From Candidatus Cloacimonadota bacterium (GTDB taxonomy: Bacteria; Cloacimonadota; Cloacimonadia; Cloacimonadales; TCS61): 58,346 bases of DNA. Positions 29,979 through 47,691 of the stretch are shown one piece after another; position 1 is the stretch's first letter, and each line of letters starts with the position of its first letter. The position numbers were made by a program, and so were the translations under genes. The notes under the pieces were generated by a model. It saw only the letters and a list, made by a program, of their open reading frames with translations, searched no databases and was not told where the DNA came from. The stretch covers positions 1-58,346 of the forward strand of contig JAGYMQ010000095.1 of assembly GCA_018400535.1 (NCBI GenBank), written 5' to 3'.

Positions 29979-31040
29979 CTATGAAAGCAGTTTTTGCAAA
30001 ATTCTCTCACTCGCTTTGCCATTTCCGTAAAGATCAATAGAATAATCATTTTTCTTCTCTTTTATTTCGCTGAAAGCAAATAAAATCTTTCTGGTATCGC
30101 TTCCCACAACGCTGTTAAAGCCGTGATCAACCAATTCGATCCATTCGGTCTCATCGCGCAGCGTGATGCATTGTTTTTGGAAGAAAAAGGCTTCTTTTTG
30201 CAAACCACCACTATCGGTCATCACCAGCTCACAATTTTGCAAAAGGTAGATCATTTCAAGATAACCAACAGGCGAGATCAATTTCAGATTGGAAATTTTT
30301 TTGATTTCCTGAGGTAAGATTTTCCTGGTCCTGGGATGCAATGGTAAAATGATCGTGATCTTTTCTGCTATTTTTTGAAAAGCATTAAAGATATTATTAA
30401 GCTTTTGTGGATCATCTGTATTTTCGGCACGATGGATCGTTGCTAAAACAAATTTTTCTGGAATTTCAAACTCAGGTTTACACGAAAATTTACTATAAAA
30501 TATCGCTGCATCCTGCATTACATCGCCGCTTTTAAAGATCTCTGTTAGGTGATCACTACCTATTCCCTCATTTTGCAAATTCCTTACAGCAGAATCGGTG
30601 GGACAAAACAGCAGATCACTGATCTTATCGGTAAGGATCCGATTAATCTCTTCCGGCATTCTGCGATTGAAAGAACGTAATCCCGCTTCCACATGAGCAA
30701 CTTTGATATGCAGCTTTTTAGCAGCAAGAGCTCCTGCCAGGGTGGAATTCGTATCACCATAAACTACAACCCAATCCGGTCTTTCGGAAAGCAGAACTTT
30801 TTCGATCTTTTTCAACATTCTTGCCGTCATCGCACCATGAGAAAGACTGTTCACTTCCAGATTATAATCGGGTTCAGGAATTTTCATCTGCTGGAAAAAG
30901 ATCTCGCTCATATTAGCATCGAAATGCTGCCCGGTGTGAACGATCTTTTCTTCAATCTCCGGATATTTGGCAATTTCACGACTTACCGCCGCAGCTTTTA
31001 TGAACTGCGGGCGTGCGCCGATAATGTGAGTGATTAGCAT
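29979..31040 (-). CDS. wecB: UDP-N-acetylglucosamine 2-epimerase (non-hydrolysing)
   Basis: The 353-residue enzyme converts UDP-GlcNAc to UDP-ManNAc. Motifs: IGARPQFIKAAAV at the N-terminus, VVYGDTNSTLAGA (catalytic Asp), AHVEAGLRSFNRRMPEEINR (two catalytic Glu), 'ATIHRAENTD' and TDSGGLQKEAFF. It is a GT-B-like fold. GGAG precedes the ATG. It is the last gene of the long polysaccharide block, 8 bp after the lipoprotein deacetylase, so UDP-ManNAc or its uronic acid is a likely sugar precursor of that polymer. Confidence 0.93.
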   Translation of the reverse strand: MLITHIIGARPQFIKAAAVSREIAKYPEIEEKIVHTGQHFDANMSEIFFQQMKIPEPDYNLEVNSLSHGAMTARMLKKIEKVLLSERPDWVVVYGDTNSTLAGALAAKKLHIKVAHVEAGLRSFNRRMPEEINRILTDKISDLLFCPTDSAVRNLQNEGIGSDHLTEIFKSGDVMQDAAIFYSKFSCKPEFEIPEKFVLATIHRAENTDDPQKLNNIFNAFQKIAEKITIILPLHPRTRKILPQEIKKISNLKLISPVGYLEMIYLLQNCELVMTDSGGLQKEAFFFQKQCITLRDETEWIELVDHGFNSVVGSDTRKILFAFSEIKEKKNDYSIDLYGNGKASERILQKLLS

Positions 31041-31048
31041 TTTTGCTC

Positions 31049-31765
31049 CTACTTTTTTACCAATTCTTGTAACGTTATAACTTCAAATTTATTATAATAT
31101 ATCCATTGCATAATTTCTCTAAACTCATCTGGTGGACAATTGCTTCCAAAGCCTTCGTCATCATGATATATTTTGTGAAAGCCCAATATAACCGCATATT
31201 CATTATTCTCAACAGCTCGAATTATTCTGGAGAAGATGATTTCTGGCGTAAATGAACTATCATAAGAAAAATATCCCAAATTCGTTCTGTCTATCGGGTA
31301 AAATTGCGGGATATCAATACTGCTGCGGATATTGTCATAATATTTTAAAATGATCGCTAAATGTTCTCCATTAGCAGCTCCAGAAGGTAAAGCAAATGAT
31401 TTTGGATTAAGATTATGTTCTTGCAAATTCAACAGATCTTGATGGATCTCAGATTCAACTTCCAGAAGAGAATAATCGGGCAAAAATGGATGGTTCACCG
31501 TATGACCTCCAATTTCCCAGTTATGTTGATTTGCCATTTCTTCGATCTGCTGCCAATTGCATTTTCCTTCCATTCCGATTTTACCACTATTGATAAAACT
31601 CGTAACTGGAAATCCAAATTCTTGTAATATTGCTAATGCGTGCGAGTATTGACTTTCATAAGCATCGTCGAACGTAATGACGATGTAAGGCTTTTGCTCA
31701 GTGAAAATAGTCGGTGAGCTGCAACCAATCATAATTACAAAAAACAGACTAAATATTTTTTTCAT
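31049..31765 (-). CDS. Lipoprotein polysaccharide deacetylase
   Basis: I place the start at 31765 because a lipoprotein signal follows immediately (MKKIFSLFFVIMIGC, C15). The 238-residue product is a NodB/CE4-type deacetylase: TFDD at 31-34 with the catalytic/metal Asp pair, and the metal-binding HTxxH as GHTVNH (H88, H92). The later CE4 motifs are weaker. It would remove acetyl groups from a polymer in the periplasm or at the outer membrane. It overlaps the outer-membrane barrel gene by 17 nt. The pairing of a lipoprotein deacetylase with an outer-membrane barrel recalls PgaB/PgaA of poly-GlcNAc export. Confidence 0.82.
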   Translation of the reverse strand: MKKIFSLFFVIMIGCSSPTIFTEQKPYIVITFDDAYESQYSHALAILQEFGFPVTSFINSGKIGMEGKCNWQQIEEMANQHNWEIGGHTVNHPFLPDYSLLEVESEIHQDLLNLQEHNLNPKSFALPSGAANGEHLAIILKYYDNIRSSIDIPQFYPIDRTNLGYFSYDSSFTPEIIFSRIIRAVENNEYAVILGFHKIYHDDEGFGSNCPPDEFREIMQWIYYNKFEVITLQELVKK

Positions 31766-32780
31766 AGGAAAAATTGACCTGCAAGCCGATTTCATAATAA
31801 TTATCATCAAAATCTGGTGTAAATAAACTGGCATTAATTCCCATCATAAAATGCTTTGAGAAAGGATAGAGATGCAAAAAGGAATATTCGATATTCAGAT
31901 AATCGCTAGAAAATTCTTCAATTTTGTTATAGCGATAAAAAAAGTAATTTTCCAACGATGCGAGCTTGAACTTCAAAAAGCTTTGGGACTGAGAATTCTG
32001 TTTTTGCGAAAGCTCAAAACTTTCTAAAAATAAATTTGAACCAAATTCAAAATATTGGATAGGCCGAACTATGATCTCCCACAAAGTTTTGATCTTATCA
32101 CCCTTTTCACGATTTGGCAGATATTGATAAACAAAACTCTGATAAAAAGTAAGATATGGAATTTCGAATTTTGTTTCTATTCCAAAAGAATGATTTTTTG
32201 TATTGTATTCTTCGTTTCTCCCCACGAATAAATAATAGATTTTTGCCTTTAAATTTTTATGTTTCCAATTTAATTCCAGATTTCCGATCAAATAGTGGAA
32301 ACTGTTGCCAGCGAGTAAGCCTTTGACAGCATATTTTTTCTTATGGAAAATAATTTCTCCGCCATTGAACTGATAATTCTCGATCACGCCCAGATCGTAA
32401 AACCGATCCTTCACTTGCAAAGCGTAGATTTGCGATTCTGCTCCATATTTTAAATCATCATATTTTGCAGAAAAGATGAAATCGGAAATTTCATAACTGA
32501 CACCCAGCCTGTTCAATAAAATTTCTCTCGCATAGAATTTGTCATTATAAGTAAGATCAAACCAAAATTTGCTATTCTGTCTCAGACGATATTTCCAACC
32601 AGCAAAAAAGACATTTCTATCAAAATAATTCGTAGTTTTGTATTCACGGTCGGGAAAGTGATCGAAACCAATAAACGAATTCAGTTGGAAATAGAAATTA
32701 TCCCGATCAAACATTTCCAGAGCAAAGGATTTTGTCAGAATAAAGAAAAATATTAGGAATAGGATTCTATTTCTTTTCAA
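31749..32780 (-). CDS. Outer-membrane beta-barrel protein
   Basis: The gene starts at a TTG (32778-32780): GGAG (32788-32791) lies 7 nt upstream and a signal peptide (KRNRILFLIFFFILTKSFAL) follows directly, while a longer frame would overlap the previous gene by 92 bp. The product has about 343 residues of alternating hydrophobic strands rich in Tyr/Phe ('FWFDLTYNDKFYAREI', 'YYFEIGLQVNF'-like end), consistent with a 14-18-stranded barrel. It overlaps its neighbours on both sides (14 and 17 nt). Its location between a glycosyltransferase and a deacetylase suggests a polysaccharide exporter; no family name can be assigned. Confidence 0.7.
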   Translation of the reverse strand: MKRNRILFLIFFFILTKSFALEMFDRDNFYFQLNSFIGFDHFPDREYKTTNYFDRNVFFAGWKYRLRQNSKFWFDLTYNDKFYAREILLNRLGVSYEISDFIFSAKYDDLKYGAESQIYALQVKDRFYDLGVIENYQFNGGEIIFHKKKYAVKGLLAGNSFHYLIGNLELNWKHKNLKAKIYYLFVGRNEEYNTKNHSFGIETKFEIPYLTFYQSFVYQYLPNREKGDKIKTLWEIIVRPIQYFEFGSNLFLESFELSQKQNSQSQSFLKFKLASLENYFFYRYNKIEEFSSDYLNIEYSFLHLYPFSKHFMMGINASLFTPDFDDNYYEIGLQVNFSYEKNI

Positions 32781-33993
32781 CGAGAATCTCCAAAATTGAT
32801 AAAAGTTGCGTGGCAAGTTTGTTACGATTAAAATTTTTTGACACGAATTTTCTGCCATTATTTTGATACTTTTCCATCTGCTCTGGATTATTTTTTAGAA
32901 CAAGAATTTTTTCGGTCAGATCCTCTGCACTATCCGGTTCAAAACTAATTCCAGCTTCTGCTTCCTGCAAAATTTCTTTTGCTTCTCCTTTCACACCTAA
33001 AAGAATCGGTAAACTTGCCGACATATAATCAAATAACTTGGATGGGATCGTAGTTTCAAAGACTTTTATATTACGTAATGGAATAACACCACAATCCGCT
33101 ATGGAAAAGTATTTATTCACTTCTACTTTAGGAATTTCTCCCACAAAATGTACATTATTAATTTTTTCTCTTTTTTTATGATCAAGAAGTTTCTGCTTTT
33201 CTGGTCCTGATCCAAGAAATAGAAAGCCAATTTTTTCCATTTCCAGTTTTTTAGCAGCTTGCAGAATTGTTTTCAAATTTTGCGCAAGTCCTAAGTTTCC
33301 AGCATAGACAACCAAAAAATTATAACTTTTTTTATATTTGGATAATAATTCAGGCTGCGGGTTAATCTTCTGATAACTAAGATCGCTGCCATTGCGGATA
33401 ACTTTTATCTTTTCCTTTGGAATTCCCTTTTTAATTATCCTTTGTTTGAATCTTTGTGTTACAGCAATTATCAAATTGGAATTGTTATAAAGCGCTTTTT
33501 CCAGTTTATGACTGAAATGGATTATTTTTGGATTATTCAATTCACCCATCTCGATAGCTGCATCAGGCCAAAGGTCTCGCACTTCGAAAACAAATTTAAT
33601 ATTGGGGTATATCTTTTTCAGCCACAAACCAATTTTTCCCACAAATAATGGTGGTGAAGTCACGTAAACTAGATCAAAATTTTTCCAGTTGAAAACCGTA
33701 TGAAGCGTTCCCAATAGCATAAATGAGCCATAAAAGAACAAACGCGTGATACTTGATTTTTTGGGATTAGTATAAACCCAAACTCTGTGAATGTGGAAAT
33801 TCTCCATTTTTTCTTTGATAAATAATTTTCTTTTATAATCTTCAAAAATTATACCGCGTGGATGATTCGGCATTTCTGTAAGAACAGTGACATCGTGCCC
33901 ATTTTCCGCAAAATTACGTACATTCGCCAGCGCTCGGTTTGTAGTTGCTCCAATTTCTGGATAAAAATACTGGGTGATGTAAAGGATTTTCAT
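32767..33993 (-). CDS. Glycosyltransferase family 4 (WbuB-like)
   Basis: A 408-residue GT-B enzyme. The N-terminal domain opens MKILYITQYFYPEIGATTNR, typical of WbuB-type GT4 enzymes. The C-terminal nucleotide-sugar site includes VVYAGNLGLAQNL, 'FLFLGSGPEKQKL' and the late Glu region FETTIPSKLFDYMSASLPIL. WbuB-like enzymes often transfer an N-acetyl-fucosaminyl or related amino sugar (family knowledge). It is one of four GT-B glycosyltransferases in the block and overlaps the outer-membrane barrel gene by 14 nt. Confidence 0.88.
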   Translation of the reverse strand: MKILYITQYFYPEIGATTNRALANVRNFAENGHDVTVLTEMPNHPRGIIFEDYKRKLFIKEKMENFHIHRVWVYTNPKKSSITRLFFYGSFMLLGTLHTVFNWKNFDLVYVTSPPLFVGKIGLWLKKIYPNIKFVFEVRDLWPDAAIEMGELNNPKIIHFSHKLEKALYNNSNLIIAVTQRFKQRIIKKGIPKEKIKVIRNGSDLSYQKINPQPELLSKYKKSYNFLVVYAGNLGLAQNLKTILQAAKKLEMEKIGFLFLGSGPEKQKLLDHKKREKINNVHFVGEIPKVEVNKYFSIADCGVIPLRNIKVFETTIPSKLFDYMSASLPILLGVKGEAKEILQEAEAGISFEPDSAEDLTEKILVLKNNPEQMEKYQNNGRKFVSKNFNRNKLATQLLSILEILVEKK

Positions 33994-33995
33994 CC

Positions 33996-35393
33996 TCAGG
34001 TTTTCCTCAAGATTTTAATCAATTTAATTTCAAAAGGTTGCAATTCGATAATTTTTTCATTTTTAGTATTGCCAATTTTTTGGTTGATCAACTGATATTC
34101 TCCATCAAGATAGACTTCAAAAAGGTCTAATGTATTATTAACATTGACTTTGAGTGGAAAAGATATTTCATTTTTAGAAGTATTTGAGATTATTAGAAAT
34201 ATAGTGTTTTTGTAGTCATAAGCGGTATAATCCACATCCCACAGAAGCTTACCAAAATGATCATTTTTGTCATCATTAATTTTTAAAACGTCATTATCAA
34301 TCAAATCAGGATAGTGGTAACCTTCCAAAATAGCTTTCTGAAAATCACTTTTACGAAATTCCCAAATTATTCGTTTTAGATTTTGGTAGGATGTTTTATT
34401 TATGCGATAATGACAATAAATATTAATGCCTTTTGCACCGCAAACAATGCTATCGTAAAACATAAAACGATGTTCTTTGTAAGTCGGATAGCGCGCTGTC
34501 GTTGAGCCTAATTTGATGTTTTTATGATAAGCCTGCAGAGTAACGCCATATTTTTTCTCTGAATAATGCTCTCTATTATAATCTAAAATATATTTTTTGC
34601 CGACCACGGCGTTGAAATGAAATTCCGAAAGGCGATAAAATTCTGGCATAAATTCTTCCAGATCAGTGTATATATCAGATTTTTTATGTAATGGATAGAT
34701 TTGCGGAGTGAGAATATCTACAAAATTGATCAAATAGGGATAGCGTTTTACGTAATCTCCCACAATACAAGCAGATAATTTTAGCTTATCAGATTTTTCC
34801 TGAAGAACATCATAAGCCTGCTTGGTGTTCGCATAATTCCAATTATCTTTTTGGACATCATCATTAAAATACCAGTGTACACGATCATTATCAATATATT
34901 TTTGGAAATGAACAGGAAAAACATTCAGCGGAATTATCTCCGAATCATAAATGTCATAAGTTCTTAAGAAAAACTCCAGCGGGAAATCATTGATAATCCT
35001 CTCAGCATTTTTGTTATGAACATAGTTATGCGGTTTCAGATAAAAAACAATTCCTGTAGCAACCTTATCATTATATAATTGAGAAACACGATTATACGGA
35101 TCTTTCACTTCAAATTCATCATAAGCCAATTCCAGTTGTGGAGCATAAGGTGGCCAATAGGTTTTAGCAAAATTTTCACCTTTTTGAGAAGAACCTTCAT
35201 ACCAATTTATCATGAAATATTTTTCGCCGTGACGAGTAAATTCGGAATTGGATTTACTGATAATAACAGGAGTATCTTCCAAGAGAAAAGAGGCGCGTAG
35301 AGAATCCAAATCTAACGATAACAATAAAAATATTATTAACGATATAAAATTTTTAAAACTAATCAAACTTGATAAATTCATTGATTTTTTCAT
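33996..35393 (-). CDS. Exported glycoside-hydrolase-like protein
   Basis: The 465-residue product has a signal sequence (about 1-35). The central part alternates strands and helices like a TIM barrel ('VDILTPQIYPLHKKSD', 'GINIYCHYR'), and the C-terminal 90 residues look like a beta-sandwich cap ('IFLIISNTSKNEISFPLKV', 'LQPFEIKLIKI'), a domain order common in glycoside hydrolases. I do not recognise a specific family. TGGAAG precedes the ATG, and the gene overlaps the GT9 gene by 35 nt. It may trim or modify the exported polysaccharide. Confidence 0.55.
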   Translation of the reverse strand: MKKSMNLSSLISFKNFISLIIFLLLSLDLDSLRASFLLEDTPVIISKSNSEFTRHGEKYFMINWYEGSSQKGENFAKTYWPPYAPQLELAYDEFEVKDPYNRVSQLYNDKVATGIVFYLKPHNYVHNKNAERIINDFPLEFFLRTYDIYDSEIIPLNVFPVHFQKYIDNDRVHWYFNDDVQKDNWNYANTKQAYDVLQEKSDKLKLSACIVGDYVKRYPYLINFVDILTPQIYPLHKKSDIYTDLEEFMPEFYRLSEFHFNAVVGKKYILDYNREHYSEKKYGVTLQAYHKNIKLGSTTARYPTYKEHRFMFYDSIVCGAKGINIYCHYRINKTSYQNLKRIIWEFRKSDFQKAILEGYHYPDLIDNDVLKINDDKNDHFGKLLWDVDYTAYDYKNTIFLIISNTSKNEISFPLKVNVNNTLDLFEVYLDGEYQLINQKIGNTKNEKIIELQPFEIKLIKILRKT

Positions 35394-36381
35394 AAACTTC
35401 CATTACTGATAATTGTTTCAAACATTTAATATTACAATCTTTTTCCGGATATAAGCATGGCTGACAGGATAAATTCTTTTTAATAATATGCACCTTGTTA
35501 GAATAGGGAGCTGTTTTTCTTTCATCACCTGGACCAAAGATCGTGAAAATTTCTGTATCAAAGGCAGATGCAATGTGGCCTAACCCTGAATCAGAATTGA
35601 GAAAAAAATCAGCTTTTTTAATTATTGCTGCAATGTTCTCTAAAGGTTCATTTTTGACTATAAGTGAATTCGTTTTCCGAGCTATTCTTTCTGATTCTTT
35701 TAATTCATCAGGACCAGCTGCTATTATTATCTTGTTCTTAGGATGATCAGCTTTTATTCTCTTTATTAAATTGATGAATTTTTCATTTTCCCATCTACGA
35801 TGTTTACCTTTTGAACTAGTTCCCACATGAACTACCATTTTTCTAAAATCAATTAGATTGTTTTTCTCAATAAAATCTTCAGCAAAGAGTTCAGCTTCCT
35901 GAGATAAGTTCAGAGATATCTTTATCTCTTTCAAATAGTATTTTTTTTTCGTAACCAAACTCCATAAATTCATATTTACTTTTACGCGATGTAACGAACG
36001 TTCAAATTTATTTTGTTTTGTATATAATATTGGGATTTCTTTTTTTAAATATTCTCCAACTCGTTCTTTCGCTCCAACGAGATAGGAAAAAAAAGCAAGC
36101 TTGATCGGCTTGCTTGCAAAGCTGATCGAAGTTACGATAGAAACATCATATCTTTTTCTTCTCAAACTTTGGATTATCTTAAAAAGATTCCTTATCTCAT
36201 AATTTGAATAAAATATTTTATTAATGAAATGAGGGTTTGTTATAGGAAATTTTGCAGCAGAATTAGTATAAAACAGATCAATCTTTGCATTTGGAAAATC
36301 ATGATAAACTTGGTTTAACATCGGCAATGCCATGATCATATCACCCATCCCAAAAGTATGAATGATCAATATTTTTTTCAT
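35359..36381 (-). CDS. Glycosyltransferase family 9 (heptosyltransferase-like)
   Basis: The 340-residue product begins MKKILIIHTFGMGDMIMALP, the GT9 signature. It contains VVHVGTSSKGKHRRWENEKF (phosphate/nucleotide loop) and 'LNSDSGLGHIASAFDTEIFT', the GT9 acceptor-site motif. A C-terminal Cys cluster (CQPC ... CNIKC) is typical of this subgroup. GT9 enzymes transfer heptose or similar sugars to lipid A core or O-antigen chains. It overlaps the C5-epimerase gene by 4 nt and the hydrolase-like gene by 35 nt. Confidence 0.9.
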   Translation of the reverse strand: MKKILIIHTFGMGDMIMALPMLNQVYHDFPNAKIDLFYTNSAAKFPITNPHFINKIFYSNYEIRNLFKIIQSLRRKRYDVSIVTSISFASKPIKLAFFSYLVGAKERVGEYLKKEIPILYTKQNKFERSLHRVKVNMNLWSLVTKKKYYLKEIKISLNLSQEAELFAEDFIEKNNLIDFRKMVVHVGTSSKGKHRRWENEKFINLIKRIKADHPKNKIIIAAGPDELKESERIARKTNSLIVKNEPLENIAAIIKKADFFLNSDSGLGHIASAFDTEIFTIFGPGDERKTAPYSNKVHIIKKNLSCQPCLYPEKDCNIKCLKQLSVMEVYEKINEFIKFD

Positions 36382-37325
36382 TTTATTCTACTCCATATTT
36401 TCATGACTAAGGCTTTTATTCGAAAAAAAGCATTCTTTTGATAATTTTGCCATTTATTTGCATAGTCATTAAAAATTTTTTTCCCTGTTAATTCATGCAA
36501 AATCTTTAACTGCTTTATATGAAGGTTATGATAAAAATAACTAGCGATAAAATTATGTTCTGACCACAGATCATACCAACTCCAAAAACCAATATCCCAT
36601 TTTTTTAGATTTTCACTCAAATTTTGAATATGAAGCTGAAACAATTCTTCATATTTATCATCGACCTGCATAAGATCATATATTGACCAGATTGCAGATA
36701 TATACCCATTTAGGACAGATGAAGGTTTAGTAGTTGTGTATTCTTCCAGACAGATAAAATCTTTTTGGTTAGAAAAAACACCGCCCTTATCAATCGAAAC
36801 TCCAAAAGATAATGATGCCTTACGAGCACTTTCCAAATATTGTTCTTTCTGGGTTTCAAGATAAGCACGAGTGAGTGCAGAAATCCCAAACGCTTGCCCT
36901 AATGCTGATGACCAATTTCCATACAAACCAAAAAGGCGAACTGGAAATTTATTAATCCAAACACCATTACATTGCTTATATGTTTTTTGGTTCTTTACTA
37001 ACCAATTACAATGTGATAAAAATTCTTTCATCCATCTTTCGGAAACTGATTTTATAAACACTTCATAAGCACCCAATGCATATTGACCAATTTCTATTGC
37101 ATTATAATAATACTTATCGTCTTCACCTCTATATAAGATAATATCATTGATATCTTTTGCTCCACTAAACCAAGTTGCTTTCTTCGAAATATCCCAGAAA
37201 TAATTGTTCCCATTATATTTATTCATAGTAATTGGATAATCAATATGCCAATAATCTTCATTTCTAAAACCAAAGTACATTAGAATTGTTTTAAAGTTTC
37301 TAGCTGATTTATCTGCTCTTATCAT
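36378..37325 (-). CDS. D-glucuronyl C5-epimerase-like protein
   Basis: The 315-residue protein matches the C-terminal catalytic domain of heparosan-glucuronate C5-epimerases (C5-epim_C). Signatures: NWSSALGQAFGISALTRAYL (about 137-156), LEEYTTTKPSSVLNGYISAI (about 193-212), WSWYDLWSEHN and YFYHNLHIKQLKIL. The three Tyr that are catalytic in animal GLCE appear as Y196, Y251 and Y265 (mapped by eye). The enzyme would turn D-glucuronate into L-iduronate (or mannuronate into guluronate) within a polymer. There is no signal peptide, so it acts in the cytoplasm on lipid-linked intermediates, unlike the Golgi enzyme. It overlaps GT9 by 4 nt. Confidence 0.82.
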   Translation of the reverse strand: MIRADKSARNFKTILMYFGFRNEDYWHIDYPITMNKYNGNNYFWDISKKATWFSGAKDINDIILYRGEDDKYYYNAIEIGQYALGAYEVFIKSVSERWMKEFLSHCNWLVKNQKTYKQCNGVWINKFPVRLFGLYGNWSSALGQAFGISALTRAYLETQKEQYLESARKASLSFGVSIDKGGVFSNQKDFICLEEYTTTKPSSVLNGYISAIWSIYDLMQVDDKYEELFQLHIQNLSENLKKWDIGFWSWYDLWSEHNFIASYFYHNLHIKQLKILHELTGKKIFNDYANKWQNYQKNAFFRIKALVMKIWSRIK

Positions 37326-37326
37326 T

Positions 37327-39726: not shown

Positions 39727-39747
39727 TATGAATTACCTTTAACATAT

Positions 39748-40932
39748 TTATTTTAGAATTCCTTCATACAAATCTATCAATTCTGACTCTTTATTTTTAT
39801 ATTTACTTTGAACAGAAAAAATAGAGTTAGATTTTATCCTATTATAAAGTATCATATTTTGGAACAAGTTAACAATATTCATATAAATACCTACTGATTT
39901 TTTTGTTTCAACTAAAATTCCATTTTTATTATTCTCGATGATTTGCGAAGGACCTTGAGTTCTGGTGGCGATCGATGGTACACCACATGCCATTGCTTCA
40001 ACTAAAGCCAATCCGAAAGCTTCATTTAAAGATGGTAATACAAAAACATCTGCAGCTCTGTAATAATCTGCCAGCTTATTTTGAGGAAGGTGATCAACAA
40101 GCTTAACTTTATTTTCAATTTCATATTCTTTTATCAGTTTTAAATAGGTTTTTTTTAATGCTCCTTTACCAACCAAAATAAGTAAACTATTCGGAAATTC
40201 TTTCTTAATTCTTCTCATTGCTTGAAGCAAATATTTATGCCCTTTGTCTGTAATGAAATTTCCCACTGATAAAATAATTTTCAAATCACTTGGAAGTTGC
40301 AAATTTCTTCTTGCTTCATTTTTAGGGCCAGCGTGAAACAATTCATGATTATAACTATTTTCTATCATAACCACATTAGCTTCAGGAAAAACGCTTTGGA
40401 AATGCAAGGTGAATTTATGTGAAACACAAACAATCTTTTTTGCCTTTTGTACTGTCTTTTTTATGAGAACGCGTTCTTTTTCCCTATATACATTACCCCT
40501 TGTAAGCTCATGATCTTTAGGATAAAGTCGATAAAAATCGAACCCATGTGACGATATTAAATAAGGAATTTTCAGTTCTTCTGCAAGATACATAGCAGCT
40601 GTTCCTGTTGGAAAAAGGGTATGAGCATGTATGAGATCAAATTTTTGATTTCTAATTAGTTTTTGAATTTTTTTTGAAATTTGAATTGGATAAAATTCTG
40701 ATAACATATTTTGAGGTAATCCATAATAAAATATTTTTTTTTGCCTTTCAGCAGGAATTTCCGAACTTAATCGGGGATTTTTAAAATTTTGGCGATAGGC
40801 TGATTTCCTCAAATATAAATATAAATTTATCGGAAAAATAGTAAAAGAATCAACATTATATTTACTTAATTTACAAATCTGGTTGTGAATAAATGAATTA
40901 GAATAATATGGAGAAATGTATAAAACTTTCAT
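39748..40932 (-). CDS. Glycosyltransferase family 4
   Basis: The 394-residue GT-B enzyme is a good match to the family. The acceptor domain has FDLIHAHTLFPTGTAAMYLA and 'PYLISSHGFDFYRL'. The donor domain has ILSVGNFITDKGHKYLLQAM, 'LLILVGKGALK' and NEAFGLALVEAMACGVPSIA with the E-x7-E nucleotide-sugar motif. It extends the repeat unit of the polysaccharide. Its DNA is somewhat less AT-rich than that of the neighbours on both sides. Confidence 0.92.
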   Translation of the reverse strand: MKVLYISPYYSNSFIHNQICKLSKYNVDSFTIFPINLYLYLRKSAYRQNFKNPRLSSEIPAERQKKIFYYGLPQNMLSEFYPIQISKKIQKLIRNQKFDLIHAHTLFPTGTAAMYLAEELKIPYLISSHGFDFYRLYPKDHELTRGNVYREKERVLIKKTVQKAKKIVCVSHKFTLHFQSVFPEANVVMIENSYNHELFHAGPKNEARRNLQLPSDLKIILSVGNFITDKGHKYLLQAMRRIKKEFPNSLLILVGKGALKKTYLKLIKEYEIENKVKLVDHLPQNKLADYYRAADVFVLPSLNEAFGLALVEAMACGVPSIATRTQGPSQIIENNKNGILVETKKSVGIYMNIVNLFQNMILYNRIKSNSIFSVQSKYKNKESELIDLYEGILK

Positions 40933-40984
40933 TTTATCACCATACTTGTTGAAATGTTCGTTGAATTTTTCACATTGATATCTT

Positions 40985-42190
40985 CTAACATATTCTATAC
41001 ATACCTCTTAGAATTGGTAACGTGAACACATTTCCCTTTGATGAATATCTACGATTATCTGGTGTAATAACAATTTCAGAATTCTCGATCTGTAATGATA
41101 TTTCATCGGCATTATATGGTATATTATCAAAATGGAACTTGTTATTTTTCTGATTCAATATCATTTTTTCTGAAATATTTTTATACATATATATCTCAGA
41201 AATTGTAGCATTCCATACATGTTTTTTTTCCAAATAATATAATATTTTAGTTAAACTTTTATTATCAGTAAAAATATTTGGTTCTTGTAATGATATGTGA
41301 TTTCTAGAAGGTGACATATGTTCAAAAATATTAATAATTTTGTTATTATTTAGTAAATAATCAATTTCTTTATAGAATCTATTTTCATAGTGAGTTTTAA
41401 GAAGTTTGATTACTTTCGATTTAAAGTTCTTTTTTTTCAAAATTATCGGGTTAAAAAGATTGCCTTGAAGTGTTGTTGGTATATCATAAATAGAATTTTT
41501 CCCAAATTTCTTTATTGAATAGTTGTCAGATTTAGACTCAATAGGACCATGAATGTATCTGTTATATACATTTTTTTTTAAAGCTCTGTTTTTATGAAAA
41601 TTAGCATATCTAGACCACCATTCAAATCCAGATTCTTCAATACTCTGATCACTGAATTCATTGGAAGCATAACCAGGATATTTCCCACCCTTTGGATACT
41701 CACCAATAACCTCTTTCATAATTTCTTTTCCATAGGAAATTCTATCTTTTGCTTCTTGCAGAGAAGTGAAGGTCTGCCATTCTTGGATATAATCATACCT
41801 TTCTTTGCCAGCAATACCATGATCTGTTCCATGATATGCTATTTCAAAACGAGGATTATTATGTATATTTCTAAAAAAATCTATAGTAGCTGCATCCGAA
41901 TTCAACATCTTGGAAATCATTGGTATATCAGAGTTATTGACTAATCCAGATCTTATACCAACTGGCACAAAGAATGTAACTTTAACATCGGGGAAGGGTT
42001 TTAGTAATTTGTTTATCAAATAATAAAATGCAGAATTCTTTCTATTCTTTGCATATCCCCAATCTTCTTCAGGTTCAATTTTACCATTTTTATTACGATC
42101 AACCCACACATTTGCAAGATCATCAATTCCCATTACAACTGGAGAAATAGCCCCATATTTCCATTTACAAATCTTTACTCTATTTCTCAT
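40985..42190 (-). CDS. Polysaccharide-deacetylase-like cytoplasmic protein
   Basis: The 401-residue protein has a catalytic Asp pair in VVMGIDDLANVWV (D23, D24). A calcium-loop-like insert DRNKNGKIEPEED (31-43) follows, then VKVTFFVPVG and FEIAYHGTDHG, whose H120/H124 match the HxxxH metal site of CE4/DUF2334-type deacetylases. The C-terminal 80 residues look like a small beta domain. No signal peptide is visible. In this context it might remove N-acetyl groups from hexosamines before sulfation, but this is inference; activity could equally be lost. It overlaps the flippase gene by 11 nt. Confidence 0.65.
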   Translation of the reverse strand: MRNRVKICKWKYGAISPVVMGIDDLANVWVDRNKNGKIEPEEDWGYAKNRKNSAFYYLINKLLKPFPDVKVTFFVPVGIRSGLVNNSDIPMISKMLNSDAATIDFFRNIHNNPRFEIAYHGTDHGIAGKERYDYIQEWQTFTSLQEAKDRISYGKEIMKEVIGEYPKGGKYPGYASNEFSDQSIEESGFEWWSRYANFHKNRALKKNVYNRYIHGPIESKSDNYSIKKFGKNSIYDIPTTLQGNLFNPIILKKKNFKSKVIKLLKTHYENRFYKEIDYLLNNNKIINIFEHMSPSRNHISLQEPNIFTDNKSLTKILYYLEKKHVWNATISEIYMYKNISEKMILNQKNNKFHFDNIPYNADEISLQIENSEIVITPDNRRYSSKGNVFTLPILRGMYRIC

Positions 42191-44165
42191 ATTTTTTTAT
42201 CCATATTTTTCTTATTTTTTTCACTATAACAATTCTAGAATATTTTTTAAAATTTGTTTTTTTAATACTTCTAATTGCTTTAAAATTATTTCTAGCAATT
42301 GCTATTTGTATATTTTTAATATTCTTTTCTAAACATAATTCGATTCTTTTTTGCATTACCACTTTATGCAATCCCTTTTTTCGGTATTCAGGAATAGTAA
42401 AAGCATCAAATAGAAAAGCTGTACCCTCTTTAACTCTATGATAATAATATTGAAATGTCTTTATATTTCCACTAAATACAATCCAAGCTAAATATACAAT
42501 TTTATCGTTTTCTTTATCAATAACAGCTAAGGGAGTATAAGACGTTGGATTCTTCAATCTAGGCAAAATATTCTTTTTATAATGATTACTTAATCTATAT
42601 TTTGAAAACTCTTTTAATTCTTTTGCATCCTCTAAATTTACTCTTCTCAAAGTATACTTAGCATCCAAGGAAATAGAATCTAATCTATCAAAATCATATA
42701 GTTTATAAATGTATCCTATCGACACAAATTTATAAAATATTTTGCTAATTTCATTTACAATAGCTTTCTCATAATTTTTATCGATAAGCAATAAGCGCCA
42801 ATTTGAATATAAATATACAGAAAAAAGAATTATCTTAGCCCAAAAAATAATATGTGATCCAAATGTTGTTTTTTCAATTAGTAAACCTATAAAATAAAAA
42901 ATTGAAGCATTTAAGACTAATAATAACCATAAGTTATAACTATAATTTACAAAAAAGTCTTTTTGTAATCTATTAATATTTAAGATCGCTTTCAAGATAA
43001 AAGCTACAATTGTTGCTATAGCTGCACCAATTATTCCAAACAATTTAATTAAAATAAAATTCAATAAAATATTAACAATAGCAGAAATTGTTGTATATTT
43101 TGGTAATACTTTTGTATTTTTTGTAATGTGAAAACCTGTGCCTGTAAATGCGCTTACACCAAAGGCAATATAAGCAATTCCTAAAGGAAATATCAAATAA
43201 ATCGCTCCCATATATTCAGGTTTTGCAAATAACATTAATACATAATCAATGAAATATGATATTGGTAAAATGAAGATAACAGACATTAAGATAAAAGTTG
43301 TTATCATAAAATTTAATCTATTTTTTACTAAGGGAATATCTTTGAGATTACTATATGCAAATGGAGACCAAGCCTTAGTTAACGGTTGAACCAGAAGTAA
43401 AGCGATAATCAAAGAAAACTTGTATGCAAATGCATAGATTCCTAGTTGTTCTTTGCCAAGCATAAATTTGATAAAAATATGATCAGATGAATTTAAAATC
43501 CAAAAAGAGAGAGCAGAAGGTATTAAATACACAGAAAAATTAAGAAACTTTTTTATTATTACGAAATTAAAATTGAATGCAAGATGTTTTAACCTTTTCA
43601 AAAAAACGAAATATACTATTAGTATAATTAAACCACTCGCAATCTGGCCATAGAAAACACTAATAATTCCTAGTTTTAGTATTACAACAAAAAAAATAAT
43701 AAAGCTTAGTTGAAGAATGGACTGAAGTATCTGTAATATAATAAACTTAAGTGCTTTTTTCTCTATTCTTAAGATTGATGAATTTAATTTTGTAAAGAAA
43801 AGAATAAATTGAGATGCGTATAAGACAAAATAAATCGTAGTATCTTTACTCTGGTTGAAGAATATAAGCTTGAAAAATAAAAAAAGAATAATTCCTAACA
43901 ATAGATTAAATATCAAAGAAAACCAATATGCCGATTGTATTATTCGTAATTTATTGGAATCATCATATTCATAATAGAAACGCACCAAAGCATCTGTAAT
44001 TTTTAGCCCCAGCACCCATGAAAGAATCATTCCCATAACCTGATAATAAGATAATTGACCAAAATCTTCTAAGCTGAAATTGGAGATATAAAGAGGGATT
44101 AACAAGAAATTTATACTTTTTAAAATGATAGTTCCTACTGAATAAATGACAGCTTGTTTTTTCAT
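42180..44165 (-). CDS. Wzx-type flippase fused to a C-terminal GNAT acetyltransferase
   Basis: Residues 1 to about 430 form a polysaccharide-transporter (Wzx/MATE-like) flippase with about 12-14 hydrophobic helices, beginning with the family-typical 'IYSVGTIILKSINFLLIPLY'. Residues about 494-661 form a soluble GNAT domain: YTLRRVNLEDAKELKEF, FLFDAFTIPEYRKKGLHKVV (acetyl-CoA-binding motif A) and 'IARNNFKAIRSIKKTNFKKY'. Both lie in a single uninterrupted frame. Wzx proteins normally end after the last helix, so this is a fusion. The GNAT part may acylate the lipid-linked repeat unit as it is flipped. Confidence 0.85.
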   Translation of the reverse strand: MKKQAVIYSVGTIILKSINFLLIPLYISNFSLEDFGQLSYYQVMGMILSWVLGLKITDALVRFYYEYDDSNKLRIIQSAYWFSLIFNLLLGIILFLFFKLIFFNQSKDTTIYFVLYASQFILFFTKLNSSILRIEKKALKFIILQILQSILQLSFIIFFVVILKLGIISVFYGQIASGLIILIVYFVFLKRLKHLAFNFNFVIIKKFLNFSVYLIPSALSFWILNSSDHIFIKFMLGKEQLGIYAFAYKFSLIIALLLVQPLTKAWSPFAYSNLKDIPLVKNRLNFMITTFILMSVIFILPISYFIDYVLMLFAKPEYMGAIYLIFPLGIAYIAFGVSAFTGTGFHITKNTKVLPKYTTISAIVNILLNFILIKLFGIIGAAIATIVAFILKAILNINRLQKDFFVNYSYNLWLLLVLNASIFYFIGLLIEKTTFGSHIIFWAKIILFSVYLYSNWRLLLIDKNYEKAIVNEISKIFYKFVSIGYIYKLYDFDRLDSISLDAKYTLRRVNLEDAKELKEFSKYRLSNHYKKNILPRLKNPTSYTPLAVIDKENDKIVYLAWIVFSGNIKTFQYYYHRVKEGTAFLFDAFTIPEYRKKGLHKVVMQKRIELCLEKNIKNIQIAIARNNFKAIRSIKKTNFKKYSRIVIVKKIRKIWIKKYEK

Positions 44166-44168
44166 TTA

Positions 44169-45260
44169 TTAAAAAATTCCCCAAAAAACTTTTTTAAGTA
44201 AATATATTTTTTTTAAGAATAATATTCTTTTGCAAATTACTGATTTACTATTTGGAAAATTTAATGAATATAATGGAATAAAGTCTCTTGTCCAAGTAAA
44301 TTTCCATTTATATCCTCCTGACCCCCAAAAATAGTTAATATTGTTTTGAGAACAATACTCCAAAACATGAGCCATTCTAATTTTATTTAAACGAAATTTG
44401 TAAAAGTCAGGATCGTAACCGGTATTCCAAGAAACTAAAGAATTTTTTTTTCTGAAAGCAATATTATATGATATAATTTTTTTATTAACTTCTAATCCAA
44501 ATATAAATATATTTTTTTTTGAACGTGGAAAAAGATCCTTAAAAAATTCCTTGATATCATCATCTAAAAAAAGATTTTTTCTATTGTTTCTACCAAATTT
44601 CTTTTCCAAAATTTTTTGCTTTTTAGTATATAGGCTTATGATTTCCTTAAATAAATCTAGAGTAATGCTTTCATTGTTATATACTTTAAATTTGTAGTCA
44701 TATTTTTCTAATTTATTTTTCAAATTGTTAATATTTTTTGGAAGAATAGTTCTAAAATAAGATTGATTATTCAATTTAGGTTCTGGAAAATATGGCATTT
44801 CATTTTTAAACTCTAAGTATTCATTATATTCATGTGATTTTAAGTATTGAAATAAATCAGTCCGAGAATCTATATTTGCAAGAAAAAGGGTATCCCATCT
44901 TTCGGATTTGTTTTGTATTACTTTTAGTATTTCCTTAACAATTGTTTTCTTTTTAGTATTATCTGCATTTATTACAAAATTTAGAGTATCTCCAAATCCT
45001 AAAAATCTCAATTGATTATATTTAATAAATTTTCTATTAAAATATTTTATATACAAAGGGGCAATTCCAACTATTTCATTTTGTTGATATATTAAAATAA
45101 TGAATAGCGCATCATTTTTACTTTTATTGTGTTTCCACCATAAATAATTATAATCAAAAGAAGAAAAGAAAGAACAATCAGTATCCTTTTGATACAAATT
45201 ATTCCATACCTCCATCAGATCCATAAAATCAGAATCGATTGTAATAACTTTACTCTTCAT
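44169..45260 (-). CDS. CelD/BcsL-type GNAT acyltransferase
   Basis: The 363-residue protein has two tandem GNAT-like halves, as in FemAB and CelD/BcsL proteins. The early motif 'CSFFSSFDYNYLWWKH' and IVGIAPLYIK match the N-terminal half, and 'IISYNIAFRKKNSLVSWNTGYDPDF' with 'YFWGSGGYKWKFTWT' the C-terminal half. Such enzymes acylate sugars or lipid-linked intermediates in extracellular polysaccharide pathways. The gene is highly AT-rich. It lies 3 bp upstream of the flippase-GNAT fusion. Confidence 0.75.
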   Translation of the reverse strand: MKSKVITIDSDFMDLMEVWNNLYQKDTDCSFFSSFDYNYLWWKHNKSKNDALFIILIYQQNEIVGIAPLYIKYFNRKFIKYNQLRFLGFGDTLNFVINADNTKKKTIVKEILKVIQNKSERWDTLFLANIDSRTDLFQYLKSHEYNEYLEFKNEMPYFPEPKLNNQSYFRTILPKNINNLKNKLEKYDYKFKVYNNESITLDLFKEIISLYTKKQKILEKKFGRNNRKNLFLDDDIKEFFKDLFPRSKKNIFIFGLEVNKKIISYNIAFRKKNSLVSWNTGYDPDFYKFRLNKIRMAHVLEYCSQNNINYFWGSGGYKWKFTWTRDFIPLYSLNFPNSKSVICKRILFLKKIYLLKKVFWGIF

Positions 45261-45267
45261 ACAATCA

Positions 45268-46542
45268 TTAATCCCTAAATTTTTTTATCAATCCCAAGTT
45301 CACCCAAAATAATAAAGCAACCGAGAATTGTGCAATAAAAATATCTGTAATACCTGCGAATAATAGACAGATAAAACCAATATTAGCAAATTGAACTAAT
45401 TGAGCATATTTTTTATTATTACTTCCCCTTTTAATATTCCTATATAAATTTCGAAGTATCAAATTAAAATAACCAAATGTTCCGAAAATCCCCGTAGCTA
45501 CAAATATATGAAAAAAAAGATTATGTGGATGAATCACCCAAAGATATTCATTTAAGTTATTTTTATAAAAATTATAAAAACCATCAAAACCAATACCTGT
45601 TAACCAGTTTTTTGAAATAATTATAATTGAATTATACCAAGCCAGATATCTTAACATCATTGAACTATCTACTATATTAGAAATTTTTAGTCTATCCTTA
45701 AAACTACTTGGTAGAAAAAAAATTAATAAAATTCCTAGAACGAAAGAAAGAAACAATAATTTCCAATCCCGTTTAATGAATATAATAATTAATAAAATAC
45801 CAAATCCAAAAGCTAACAAAGCCATCCTTGTATAAGTGAAGATACTACCCATCAAGATTAATAATGTAGTAAGTAAATAGAAATACTTTTCAATATTTTT
45901 TTTTGTGTAAAAAAAAAATCCTAAACTAATGAAAAAGAGAAAAATATAGAACCCATTTATTGTCATTGCCGTAACCCAGAGAGACCCAATTCTTTCATTT
46001 GGATTATTTAAAGCAATTATAATCCCAATAATTCCTACTAAAGACGCAATCAATACTTCTATTTTAAAAATTATAACAATTTGTTTCCTTTTGATTGATA
46101 AAAAACCAATAAGAACATATAGACTTATTGGTATAATAAAAGTCTGCAAACTCTTCGATATTCCCATCATCAAAGAAGAAGAATTGAAAAAACCAAAAAA
46201 ACTACCGATAGCGATACAAACCAATGAAATATAATCTATATTCTCATATTTCTTAATTTGTAAAATAAATATTAAAAGAAAGATAAATACTATGCTCCAA
46301 TAAACATATATATTTGGTTTTAAAAAAAATAGTGAAAAAATTATCAGAAAAGAATAGAGTTTAAAATCATAAATTGTAAAATATAGAATAAACATCGTAG
46401 CGATAAGAAAAAGCTTAATAAATAAAGAAAACTCAAACCCATTTAGAATAAGAGTTTCAGAGATAGGTAGAATTACTAATGCTAATAATAAACTAAATAA
46501 AAAGATTATTATTTTTTTTTTATCATCCAAACAAACTTTCAT
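45268..46542 (-). CDS. Wzy-type O-antigen/polysaccharide polymerase
   Basis: The 424-residue integral membrane protein has about 11-12 helices. The Wzy/O-antigen ligase signature is the periplasmic loop with NWLTGIGFDGF and 'EYLWVIHPHNLFFHIFVATG'. It should polymerise flipped repeat units, with chain length set by the Wzz protein encoded just upstream (20-nt overlap). I find no GATC tetramer in this gene by eye, while clpX has roughly twenty; the composition differs clearly from core genes. Confidence 0.82.
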   Translation of the reverse strand: MKVCLDDKKKIIIFLFSLLLALVILPISETLILNGFEFSLFIKLFLIATMFILYFTIYDFKLYSFLIIFSLFFLKPNIYVYWSIVFIFLLIFILQIKKYENIDYISLVCIAIGSFFGFFNSSSLMMGISKSLQTFIIPISLYVLIGFLSIKRKQIVIIFKIEVLIASLVGIIGIIIALNNPNERIGSLWVTAMTINGFYIFLFFISLGFFFYTKKNIEKYFYLLTTLLILMGSIFTYTRMALLAFGFGILLIIIFIKRDWKLLFLSFVLGILLIFFLPSSFKDRLKISNIVDSSMMLRYLAWYNSIIIISKNWLTGIGFDGFYNFYKNNLNEYLWVIHPHNLFFHIFVATGIFGTFGYFNLILRNLYRNIKRGSNNKKYAQLVQFANIGFICLLFAGITDIFIAQFSVALLFWVNLGLIKKFRD

Positions 46543-47683
46543 ATAATAACTTTATCTTATCTTTTTTGGTTGAAAGAACTTTATTAATAATAATAAGAAA
46601 ACAACTAAAAACAAATGCTAGTGTAAAAGATAGTATACACATGAATCCTCTTTTTGGCCAGGTTCTTAGACCAGAAGGAATTGCCGAATCAATTATATTA
46701 ATAGTTTGTGTATCACGCAATTCTTGAAGCTTTGCTATCTCGTATTGAGGATAAACTGTTTCATATACTTTCTTCAAAATCTCCAATTTTGTCATTAACA
46801 ATGTGTATTTTTGAGATAAATTAGGAATACTATCAAGTGGTATTTGATAATTAATAATAGAATTCTTGCCAGTTTCAATTTTCTTTATTTGTTTTATCAA
46901 TTCATCGGTTTTTAATTCATACATTTTGCTTTGATTTGAATCTGTTTTTAAATATGATTTAGATAATTGTAACTTGATATCTTCTTCCATATATTGTGAA
47001 ACTAATTCTGTATAAGAATTTAACATTGGAGGCAATTGACTTTCTAATTCCAAAACATTATATTTCTGCTGAAATTCTTTGAGCTCTTCTGTATATTTAA
47101 CTAATTGGTCGTTTATCTCGCTTATCCTTTTTTCCAGAAATTGTCTTTCTTCTTTCCCTTTTGTCATTCTAACATTTTGTAAATAATCTTCCAATTCTCT
47201 GACTAAATAATTTGCAATATCAGCCGAAAGTTCTCTATTCTTTGTAATAATACTGATGGAAAATATCCCCGTCTCTTGATCTAATTCAACAGATAAAATT
47301 TCTTCCCTAAAGGTTTTTAAGGTTGTTTCTCGGACATAATAAGGATCTTCGTGCTCAATTTCAAAATAATCAATAAGATCAAATTTATCTATAACAGGTT
47401 CTAAAAAAGTTCTACTTTTAATTACGTCTATCAATTCACTCTGTTCTTGAGAACCACCTAATAATGAAGATATATCACCACTCATTATTGAACTGAACAT
47501 TCCAATTTCCGAATTATTTGATATTGTAGGTTTAAAAGTTGCTGTCGATGTCCATTTTTCCGGCACCACCAAGCTATATATCACCGCTGCAATACTCACG
47601 ATCAAAGTCGTGATAATTATAAATTTTTTATGTTTCGCCAATATGATCAATATATCCAGAATATCTATTTCATTCTTTTCCAT
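46523..47683 (-). CDS. Wzz-type chain-length determinant
   Basis: The start is set at 47683, with GAGG 6-7 nt upstream. The 386-residue protein has the Wzz layout: N-terminal transmembrane helix (about 23-43) followed by VVPEKWTSTATF, a large periplasmic coiled coil (about 150-290), and a Pro-rich segment (PSGLRTWPKRGF) before a second helix. There is no C-terminal tyrosine kinase domain. It controls polymer length together with the Wzy polymerase. It starts 8 bp after the xth stop codon. Confidence 0.88.
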   Translation of the reverse strand: MEKNEIDILDILIILAKHKKFIIITTLIVSIAAVIYSLVVPEKWTSTATFKPTISNNSEIGMFSSIMSGDISSLLGGSQEQSELIDVIKSRTFLEPVIDKFDLIDYFEIEHEDPYYVRETTLKTFREEILSVELDQETGIFSISIITKNRELSADIANYLVRELEDYLQNVRMTKGKEERQFLEKRISEINDQLVKYTEELKEFQQKYNVLELESQLPPMLNSYTELVSQYMEEDIKLQLSKSYLKTDSNQSKMYELKTDELIKQIKKIETGKNSIINYQIPLDSIPNLSQKYTLLMTKLEILKKVYETVYPQYEIAKLQELRDTQTINIIDSAIPSGLRTWPKRGFMCILSFTLAFVFSCFLIIINKVLSTKKDKIKLLYESLFG

Positions 47684-47691
47684 AGCGTTCC

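What the first reader, a model, noticed from the sequence alone, without database searches (positions are those of the whole stretch)
29979..47683. Glycosaminoglycan-like surface polysaccharide locus with C5-epimerase, sulfotransferase and deacetylases
The sequence shows a glucuronyl C5-epimerase with all three catalytic Tyr (Y196, Y251, Y265), a PAPS-binding sulfotransferase, a cytoplasmic deacetylase-like protein and a lipoprotein deacetylase, together with Wzx, Wzy, Wzz, four GT-B glycosyltransferases and WecB. In animals, N-deacetylation, C5-epimerisation and sulfation together make heparan sulfate. Finding this set in one bacterial Wzy-type operon suggests a sulfated, uronate-containing polymer with iduronate-like sugars, made in the cytoplasm on lipid carriers. 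I know of no described system of this exact composition in this lineage.
Basis: partly seen in the sequence, partly recalled or inferred. Interest (0 to 1): 0.85.

Follow-up and report, generated by a model that had tools for sequence, protein, structure and literature searches.

The report
Sulfated L-uronate surface polysaccharide operon
A little-known anaerobic bacterium carries one 15-gene operon that very probably builds a surface sugar polymer using a close relative of the enzyme that makes iduronic acid in our heparan sulfate plus a sulfate-adding enzyme, and related bacterial phyla have brought those two enzymes together repeatedly, although the polymer is probably not heparan sulfate itself.

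Summary
The genes are real and at the stated places. 36378-37325 is a GLCE-type C5-epimerase: Pfam C5-epim_C E 1e-40, best structural matches all human or zebrafish GLCE, and all five GLCE catalytic residues present. 38602-39726 is a PAPS-type sulfotransferase.

The heparan-sulfate analogy holds only in part. 'WecB' is closest to WbpI, the UDP-2,3-diacetamido-glucuronate 2-epimerase, so a diacetamido-mannuronate is also on offer. The cytoplasmic deacetylase-like protein is supported by motifs only, and a homologue sits beside an N-acyltransferase gene in a genome with neither epimerase nor sulfotransferase. That fits acyl exchange better than N-sulfation.

The set is not unique. A GT4 glycosyltransferase lies directly upstream of the epimerase across several FCB phyla. 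Sulfotransferases lie within 10 kb of 11/45 such epimerases but only 3/142 other flippases (p = 1e-5), and the association arose several times. Seven of eight loci with a DUF7033 CE4-type deacetylase also carry a sulfotransferase.

Best reading: a Wzx/Wzy operon for a sulfated polymer containing an L-hexuronate, epimerised and sulfated in the cytoplasm on the lipid-linked repeat. Sugars, sulfate position and activities are inferred.

The parts
46523..47719 (-). Wzz-type chain-length determinant (ATG at 47683 also possible)
   Evidence: Pfam Wzz E 1.8e-16
45268..46542 (-). Wzy-type polymerase / O-antigen ligase family membrane protein
   Evidence: Pfam Wzy_C E 3.4e-19; 9 hydrophobic segments
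44169..45260 (-). Acetyltransf_6 (GNAT/FemAB-like) acyltransferase
   Evidence: Pfam E 3e-13
42180..44165 (-). Wzx-type flippase fused to a C-terminal GNAT domain
   Evidence: Polysacc_synt E 1.5e-19 and Acetyltransf_1 E 1.2e-5 at residues 550-636
40985..42190 (-). Cytoplasmic CE4-like deacetylase candidate, 'deacX' (IDDL 22, HGTDH 120, GGKYPGY 168)
   Evidence: Polysacc_deac_1 only E 0.055; ID-D and HG..H motifs invariant in 4 homologues; fold not confirmed
39748..40932 (-). GT4 glycosyltransferase
   Evidence: Glycos_transf_1 E 5.6e-43
38602..39726 (-). PAPS-dependent sulfotransferase (5'-PSB loop PRGGST 51, 3'-PB VRHPCAVVAS 194)
   Evidence: Sulfotransfer_1 E 9e-9, Sulfotransfer_3 E 5e-8; motifs
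37327..38601 (-). GT4 glycosyltransferase ('GT4b') conserved directly upstream of the epimerase; probable uronosyltransferase
   Evidence: Pfam; homologue near the epimerase in 42 loci, most abutting or overlapping
36378..37325 (-). GLCE-type D-glucuronyl C5-epimerase catalytic domain (E195, Y196, N206, Y251, Y265)
   Evidence: C5-epim_C E 1e-40; GLCE by sequence and fold; residues
35359..36381 (-). GT9 (heptosyltransferase-family) glycosyltransferase
   Evidence: Glyco_transf_9 E 5e-28
33996..35393 (-). Exported protein of unknown family, possibly a glycosidase
   Evidence: N-terminal hydrophobic segment; homologues in 3 other genomes of the phylum; no Pfam or PDB match
32767..33993 (-). WcaI-like GT4 glycosyltransferase
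   Evidence: Pfam; NCBIfam PRK10307 E 2.8e-48, below its cut-off
31749..32858 (-). Unknown protein with a hydrophobic N-terminal segment, possibly an outer-membrane barrel
   Evidence: No family; barrel is a guess from the sequence pattern
31049..31834 (-). CE4 polysaccharide deacetylase lipoprotein (likely start 31765, MKKIFSLFF)
   Evidence: Polysacc_deac_1 E 3.5e-19; TFDD 54, HTVNH 111, lipobox
29979..31040 (-).
   Evidence: Closest solved chain is the T. thermophilus UDP-GlcNAc3NAcA 2-epimerase 8sxv, 378 bits, vs 151 for 1f6d (a UDP-GlcNAc 2-epimerase); GARPQFIK 8, W300

Best explanation
This is a Wzx/Wzy-dependent surface polysaccharide operon that makes an acidic, probably sulfated polymer containing a C5-epimerised (L-) hexuronate. 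Glycosyltransferases assemble the repeat unit on a lipid carrier in the cytoplasm. The GT4 at 37327-38601 most likely adds the uronate or its neighbour. The GLCE-type epimerase then inverts C5 of that uronate in the lipid-linked oligosaccharide (GlcA to IdoA most likely, a 2,3-diacetamido-mannuronate the main alternative). The sulfotransferase adds sulfate from PAPS made by the fused ATP-sulfurylase/APS kinase. The cytoplasmic deacetylase-like protein and the Acetyltransf_6 protein probably exchange an N-acyl group. Wzx flips the unit, Wzy polymerises it, Wzz sets length, and the lipoprotein deacetylase trims acetyl groups after export. Shown by computation: gene content, families, catalytic residues, fold, PAPS and UDP-uronate capacity, recurrence of the pairings. 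Inferred: every activity, the sugars, the order of steps and the sulfate position.
For: Epimerase: 1e-40; GLCE; top 8 structural hits GLCE, E 1e-11 to 9e-11; E195 and Y196 39/39, Y265 39/39, Y251 37/39, N206 31/39. No signal peptide in epimerase, sulfotransferase or deacX. Coupling: GT4b homologue near the epimerase in 42 loci, mostly overlapping or abutting it. Sulfotransferase within 10 kb of 11/45 epimerases vs 3/142 other Wzx genes, Fisher p 1.1e-5, on several separate branches of the epimerase tree. PAPS: APS kinase in 8/12 sulfotransferase genomes vs 7/113 others (p 2e-6), 7/7 among those at least 90% complete. UDP-glucose dehydrogenase L052, 545 bits to 2y0e. Precedent for epimerising and sulfating a short archaeal glycan, with the epimerase acting at the lipid-linked stage: Halobacterium Agl32 and its sulfotransferases (PMC13308652, PMC11980604).
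Against: No activity, glycan or expression data; one MAG in 146 contigs. The window's epimerase is a long-branch outlier at 32% identity to the main clade and lacks the GLCE beta-hairpin and beta-sandwich domains, so its substrate may differ. At the whole-genome level within the phylum the epimerase and sulfotransferases do not co-occur more than expected (4/12 vs 41/113, p 1). The window sulfotransferase is not orthologous to those of the other loci. No initiating glycosyltransferase or Wza is in the operon; the only Wza found is on another contig in a separate polysaccharide locus.
Confidence: 0.62

Rival explanations
1. Heparan-sulfate-like polymer: N-deacetylation of GlcNAc, GlcA to IdoA, N- and O-sulfation in one operon.
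For: Epimerase is true GLCE family with all five catalytic residues. UGD and PAPS synthesis present. In related loci a CE4 deacetylase (DUF7033 protein; fold supported) lies beside epimerase and sulfotransferase in 7 of 8 cases, and a PIG-L deacetylase does so in L105 and L132.
Against: No glycosyltransferase pair like EXT or heparosan synthase recognised; polymerised by Wzy; sulfotransferase without any PDB match; deacX family has a member beside an Acetyltransf_6 gene in a genome with neither epimerase nor sulfotransferase; WbpI in the operon points to another uronate.
Confidence: 0.12
2. The epimerised uronate is ManNAc3NAcA or ManNAcA, turned into the L-gulo isomer, not GlcA; the polymer resembles diacetamido-uronate O-antigens and is also sulfated. 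(A variant of the best explanation that differs in the sugar.)
For: Last gene closest to WbpI, with Q12 and W300 matching sugar-contacting Gln14 and Trp307 of the solved enzyme. Butyricimonas L121/L124: WbpD-, WbpE- and WbpI-like genes directly upstream of GT4b and epimerase. Where a dehydrogenase is beside the epimerase (L104, L115, L126) it is nearer the UDP-ManNAc type. Own genome has a Cap5O-like dehydrogenase, L053.
Against: The characterised family members act on GlcA (GLCE; Bermanella enzyme, PMC13308652); WbpI-type genes in only 4 of about 55 loci; wbpB, wbpD and wbpE not looked for in this genome.
Confidence: 0.3
3. Wbp/Vim-like locus: it makes an aminoacylated diacetamido-uronate linking sugar for anchoring T9SS cargo to an anionic LPS, with epimerase and sulfotransferase decorating that LPS.
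For: WbpI, CE4-like deacetylase and Acetyltransf_6 parallel the WbpI/VimE/VimA steps of Porphyromonas and Tannerella (PMC7468200). Asn-synthase-type (WbpS-like) genes near the epimerase in many related loci. The host phyla belong to the FCB group (own knowledge: the T9SS group); a weak T9SS sorting tail is in the window.
Against: No Asn-synthase-type gene in this operon; GNAT and deacetylase not shown to be VimA or VimE orthologues; no C5-epimerase or sulfotransferase is named among the Porphyromonas enzymes in the passages read.
Confidence: 0.13
4. Incidental neighbours: the sulfotransferase modifies a lipid or another glycan and the epimerase homologue has another substrate; they share an operon because surface-glycan genes are shuffled together.
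For: No genome-level co-occurrence in the phylum; non-orthologous sulfotransferases; a different epimerase-family group sits next to zinc-transporter genes in Cloacimonadaceae.
Against: Local enrichment over other flippase loci; tight operon packing with 0-1 nt gaps around sulfotransferase, GT4 and epimerase.
Confidence: 0.15

Closest known systems
Animal D-glucuronyl C5-epimerase GLCE (heparan sulfate)
   Same: C5-epim_C domain, helical catalytic fold, all five catalytic residues
   Different: No beta-hairpin or beta-sandwich domains, no signal anchor, encoded in a Wzx/Wzy operon; substrate unknown
Bermanella marisrubri C5-epimerase (Raedts 2013, cited in PMC13308652 as the only identified bacterial one)
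   Same: Bacterial enzyme reported to use a GLCE-like mechanism
   Different: Not compared by sequence here
Halobacterium salinarum N-glycan pathway with Agl32 and two sulfotransferases (PMC13308652, PMC11980604)
   Same: Epimerisation acts on a lipid-linked oligosaccharide before export, and the glycan carries sulfated IdoA and GlcA
   Different: Agl32 has an unrelated active site; product is an N-linked tetrasaccharide, not a polymer
Sulfated capsule cluster of a marine bacterium (Vibrio sp. KMM 8419, PMC11641403)
   Same: Polysaccharide cluster with sulfotransferases and PAPS synthesis
   Different: Iduronate is not mentioned in that paper and no C5-epimerase appeared in the passages read; ABC-transporter export; PAPS genes inside the cluster
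Porphyromonas/Tannerella Wbp/Vim linking-sugar pathway (PMC7468200)
   Same: WbpI-type enzyme, CE4 deacetylase with N-acyltransferase logic
   Different: No sulfotransferase or C5-epimerase in the passages read; orthology not tested

Membership tests
GLCE / C5-epim_C family | Match to C5-epim_C above the curated cut-off | tested here: met
   139.5 bits vs cut-off 23.3
GLCE / C5-epim_C family | Catalytic residues E499, Y500, N510, Y560, Y578 (human) | tested here: met
   E195, Y196, N206, Y251, Y265
GLCE / C5-epim_C family | GLCE as nearest fold | tested here: met
   Top 8 Foldseek hits, E 1e-11 to 9e-11, query TM 0.56-0.59
GLCE / C5-epim_C family | N-terminal beta-hairpin and beta-sandwich domains of animal GLCE (a feature of the animal enzymes, not of the Pfam family) | tested here: not met
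   315 aa; residues 1-38 low confidence in the model; only the helical part matches
GLCE / C5-epim_C family | GlcA to IdoA activity in a glycan | not testable with these tools
   Needs enzyme assay
PAPS sulfotransferase | Sulfotransferase domain, 5'-PSB and 3'-PB motifs | tested here: met
PAPS sulfotransferase | PAPS synthesis in the genome | tested here: met
   Fused ATP-sulfurylase/APS kinase L054:5906-7786 beside a DASS-type anion symporter
Heparan sulfate biosynthesis | N-deacetylase/N-sulfotransferase (NDST) | tested here: inconclusive
   No fused NDST; separate deacetylase-like proteins; sulfotransferase without PDB match
Heparan sulfate biosynthesis | Alternating GlcA/GlcNAc copolymerase | tested here: not met
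   Operon has GT4 and GT9 enzymes and Wzy instead
Heparan sulfate biosynthesis | UDP-GlcA supply | tested here: met
   L052 UGD, best to 2y0e UDP-glucose dehydrogenase
Wzx/Wzy polysaccharide operon | Flippase, polymerase, chain-length regulator, glycosyltransferases | tested here: met
Wzx/Wzy polysaccharide operon | Initiating phosphoglycosyltransferase and outer-membrane Wza | tested here: inconclusive
   Neither in the operon; Wza on C28; initiating enzyme not searched genome-wide
Wbp pathway (UDP-ManNAc3NAcA) | WbpI-type 2-epimerase | tested here: met
Wbp pathway (UDP-ManNAc3NAcA) | WbpA, WbpB, WbpE, WbpD | not tested
Vim acyl-exchange pair | VimE-type CE4 deacetylase with VimA-type N-acyltransferase | tested here: inconclusive
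   deacX motifs and Acetyltransf_6 in the operon, paired in L155; orthology to VimE/VimA not tested

The most novel reading that the evidence does not exclude
FCB-group bacteria use a GT4/GLCE-type epimerase module in the cytoplasm to make L-hexuronates on lipid-linked repeats, and several lineages independently added a deacetylase and a sulfotransferase, giving glycosaminoglycan-like sulfated capsules or O-antigens. In some lineages the same enzyme family acts on 2,3-diacetamido-mannuronate.
Probability: 0.35. Interest if true: 0.8.

Novelty: new variant of a known kind. Interest (0 to 1): 0.55.

Why it matters
PMC13308652 names only one identified bacterial glucuronyl C5-epimerase and few IdoA-containing bacterial glycans. 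A compact, soluble, cytoplasmic GLCE-type enzyme with a fixed glycosyltransferase partner in many phyla gives a testable route to L-uronates in bacterial polysaccharides. Its repeated pairing with deacetylases and sulfotransferases would mean that the chemistry of animal sulfated glycosaminoglycans has been assembled in bacteria more than once. It also names concrete enzymes (compact epimerases, sulfotransferases) for making such polymers enzymatically.

Tried and rejected
'WecB' as a UDP-GlcNAc 2-epimerase: rejected in favour of WbpI type on the PDB ranking. deacX as a proven deacetylase: not accepted; Pfam 0.055, no PDB match, hhalign not significant although its best segment is the H..H motif. 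deacX as a DUF7033 relative: no. Unknown 33996-35393: no family or structure match. A single inherited epimerase-sulfotransferase operon: not favoured, given several separate changes on the tree and non-orthologous sulfotransferases. Genome-level co-occurrence of epimerase and sulfotransferase in the phylum: none.
Full report
OBSERVATION. The stretch 29979-47719 holds 15 minus-strand genes with gaps between -92 and +52 nt, one operon by packing. Pfam confirms Wzz, Wzy_C, a Wzx fused to a GNAT domain, Acetyltransf_6, three GT4 and one GT9 glycosyltransferase, a sulfotransferase, C5-epim_C, a Polysacc_deac_1 lipoprotein and an Epimerase_2 enzyme. Three proteins match nothing well: 40985-42190 (Polysacc_deac_1 only at E 0.055), 33996-35393 and 31749-32858.

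EPIMERASE. 36378-37325 scores 139.5 bits to C5-epim_C (cut-off 23.3) and matches human and zebrafish GLCE at about E 1e-20. An AlphaFold model on 39 homologues (mean pLDDT 83) has GLCE as its first eight structural matches, E 1e-11 to 9e-11. The GLCE catalytic residues listed in PMC13308652 (E499, Y500, N510, Y560, Y578) align with E195, Y196, N206, Y251 and Y265. Among 39 homologues E195, Y196 and Y265 are kept in all, Y251 in 37 and N206 in 31. The protein is only the catalytic domain and has no signal or membrane segment.

SULFATION CAPACITY. 38602-39726 has the 5'-PSB loop PRGGST and the 3'-PB motif VRHPCAVVAS but no PDB relative by sequence. Elsewhere the genome encodes a fused ATP-sulfurylase/APS kinase next to a DASS-type anion symporter (L054). 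Across 125 genomes of the phylum, strong APS kinase matches (E below 1e-30) occur in 8 of 12 genomes with a sulfotransferase and in 7 of 113 others (p 2e-6), and in all 7 sulfotransferase genomes that are at least 90% complete. So PAPS supply tracks sulfotransferases, which supports real sulfation.

URONATE SUPPLY. Two nucleotide-sugar dehydrogenases were found above the cut-off: L052 is closest to UDP-glucose dehydrogenases (545 bits to 2y0e) and L053 to the UDP-HexNAc type (Cap5O 228 bits). It keeps Q12 and W300, equivalents of sugar-contacting Gln14 and Trp307. The polymer may therefore contain a diacetamido-mannuronate, and the epimerase substrate is open between GlcA and that sugar. A caution: an annotated UDP-GlcNAc 2-epimerase, 4neq, ranks second at 300 bits, so the specificity is likely, not proven.

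RELATED LOCI. The lineage is Cloacimonadota: contigs of the same-phylum genomes coincide in length with records so named (20905 bases L092 = G116:C200; 9676 bases L079 = G087:C507). C5-epim_C occurs in 45 of 125 genomes of the phylum. A scan of genome contigs gave 55 loci in Cloacimonadota, Neomarinimicrobiota, Calditrichota, KSB1, Ignavibacteria, Bacteroidota and Pseudoalteromonas. A homologue of the GT4 at 37327-38601 is near the epimerase in 42 loci, mostly abutting or overlapping it, as in the window. I read this as a fixed uronosyltransferase/epimerase module (inference).

SULFOTRANSFERASE ASSOCIATION. Eleven of 45 epimerase loci outside Cloacimonadota have a sulfotransferase within 10 kb, against 3 of 142 other Wzx genes of the same genomes (Fisher p 1.1e-5). 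I matched loci to contigs by coordinates, and the Wzx list was cut at 8e-14. L132 (Cloacimonadota G124) and the window are two more. On the epimerase tree the label needs 9 changes, 7 forced by strong branches; it is mildly clustered compared with shuffles. The sulfotransferases are not orthologous. At whole-genome level in the phylum there is no co-occurrence. The window's epimerase is a long-branch outlier of the tree.

DEACETYLASES. In eight related loci a DUF7033 protein lies near the epimerase. Its model (mean pLDDT 70) has CE4-superfamily deacetylases (with one allantoinase, one esterase and CE4 pseudoenzymes) as its top 20 matches. Seven of those eight loci also have a sulfotransferase, against 4 of 37 without DUF7033 (p 5e-5). 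L105 has a PIG-L-type deacetylase instead, and L132 one by motif. So deacetylase + epimerase + sulfotransferase does recur with different deacetylase families. But Acetyltransf_6/FemAB genes also sit with the deacetylases: window, L091, L116, L125 and L155. L155 comes from a genome without epimerase or sulfotransferase. That is the VimE/VimA logic of PMC7468200: remove an acetyl group and put another acyl group on. I therefore prefer acyl exchange over N-sulfation for the window's pair, without proof.

MECHANISM AND STATUS. Most likely the repeat unit is built, epimerised and sulfated on its lipid carrier in the cytoplasm, then flipped and polymerised. A close precedent is the Halobacterium N-glycan, whose epimerase acts at the lipid-linked stage and whose sugars are sulfated, though its epimerase is unrelated. 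The operon has no Wza of its own; one is on C28 in another polysaccharide locus with its own Wzy_C protein, so an LPS-like product is possible. Heparan sulfate membership fails on the copolymerase and is unproven on N-deacetylation/N-sulfation. No described system of this composition was found in the papers searched, which cover only open-licence papers.

Noticed in passing
L045:12089-13042, L075:7885-8613: In Cloacimonadaceae a different group of C5-epim_C homologues, several with a membrane segment, sits in operons with ZnuA-type zinc uptake and ABC transporter genes.
   Followed up: partly
window 42180-44165: The Wzx flippase is fused to a C-terminal GNAT acetyltransferase domain.
   Followed up: no
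L069:13214-16286, L101:9779-12380: Two epimerase paralogues lie in one locus, the second very divergent.
   Followed up: no
L143:100-864: A second, different sulfotransferase of the same genome lies next to a nucleotidyltransferase and a CDP-alcohol phosphatidyltransferase-like gene, so it may serve another glycan or lipid.
   Followed up: no
L061:8662-10527, L121:11022-12950: A cluster of Asn-synthase-like (WbpS-like) proteins lies near the epimerase in about 19 loci, so the uronate may be amidated there; some members (such as L061) have no Pfam match.
   Followed up: partly
window 57-2942: M1-family peptidase with a weak type IX secretion sorting tail (E 2e-5, below cut-off).
   Followed up: no
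window 15986-18577: Protein with a TMEM260-like O-mannosyltransferase domain.
   Followed up: no
L152:7749-12140: Second polysaccharide locus with Wza and its own O-antigen-ligase-type protein on contig C28.
   Followed up: partly
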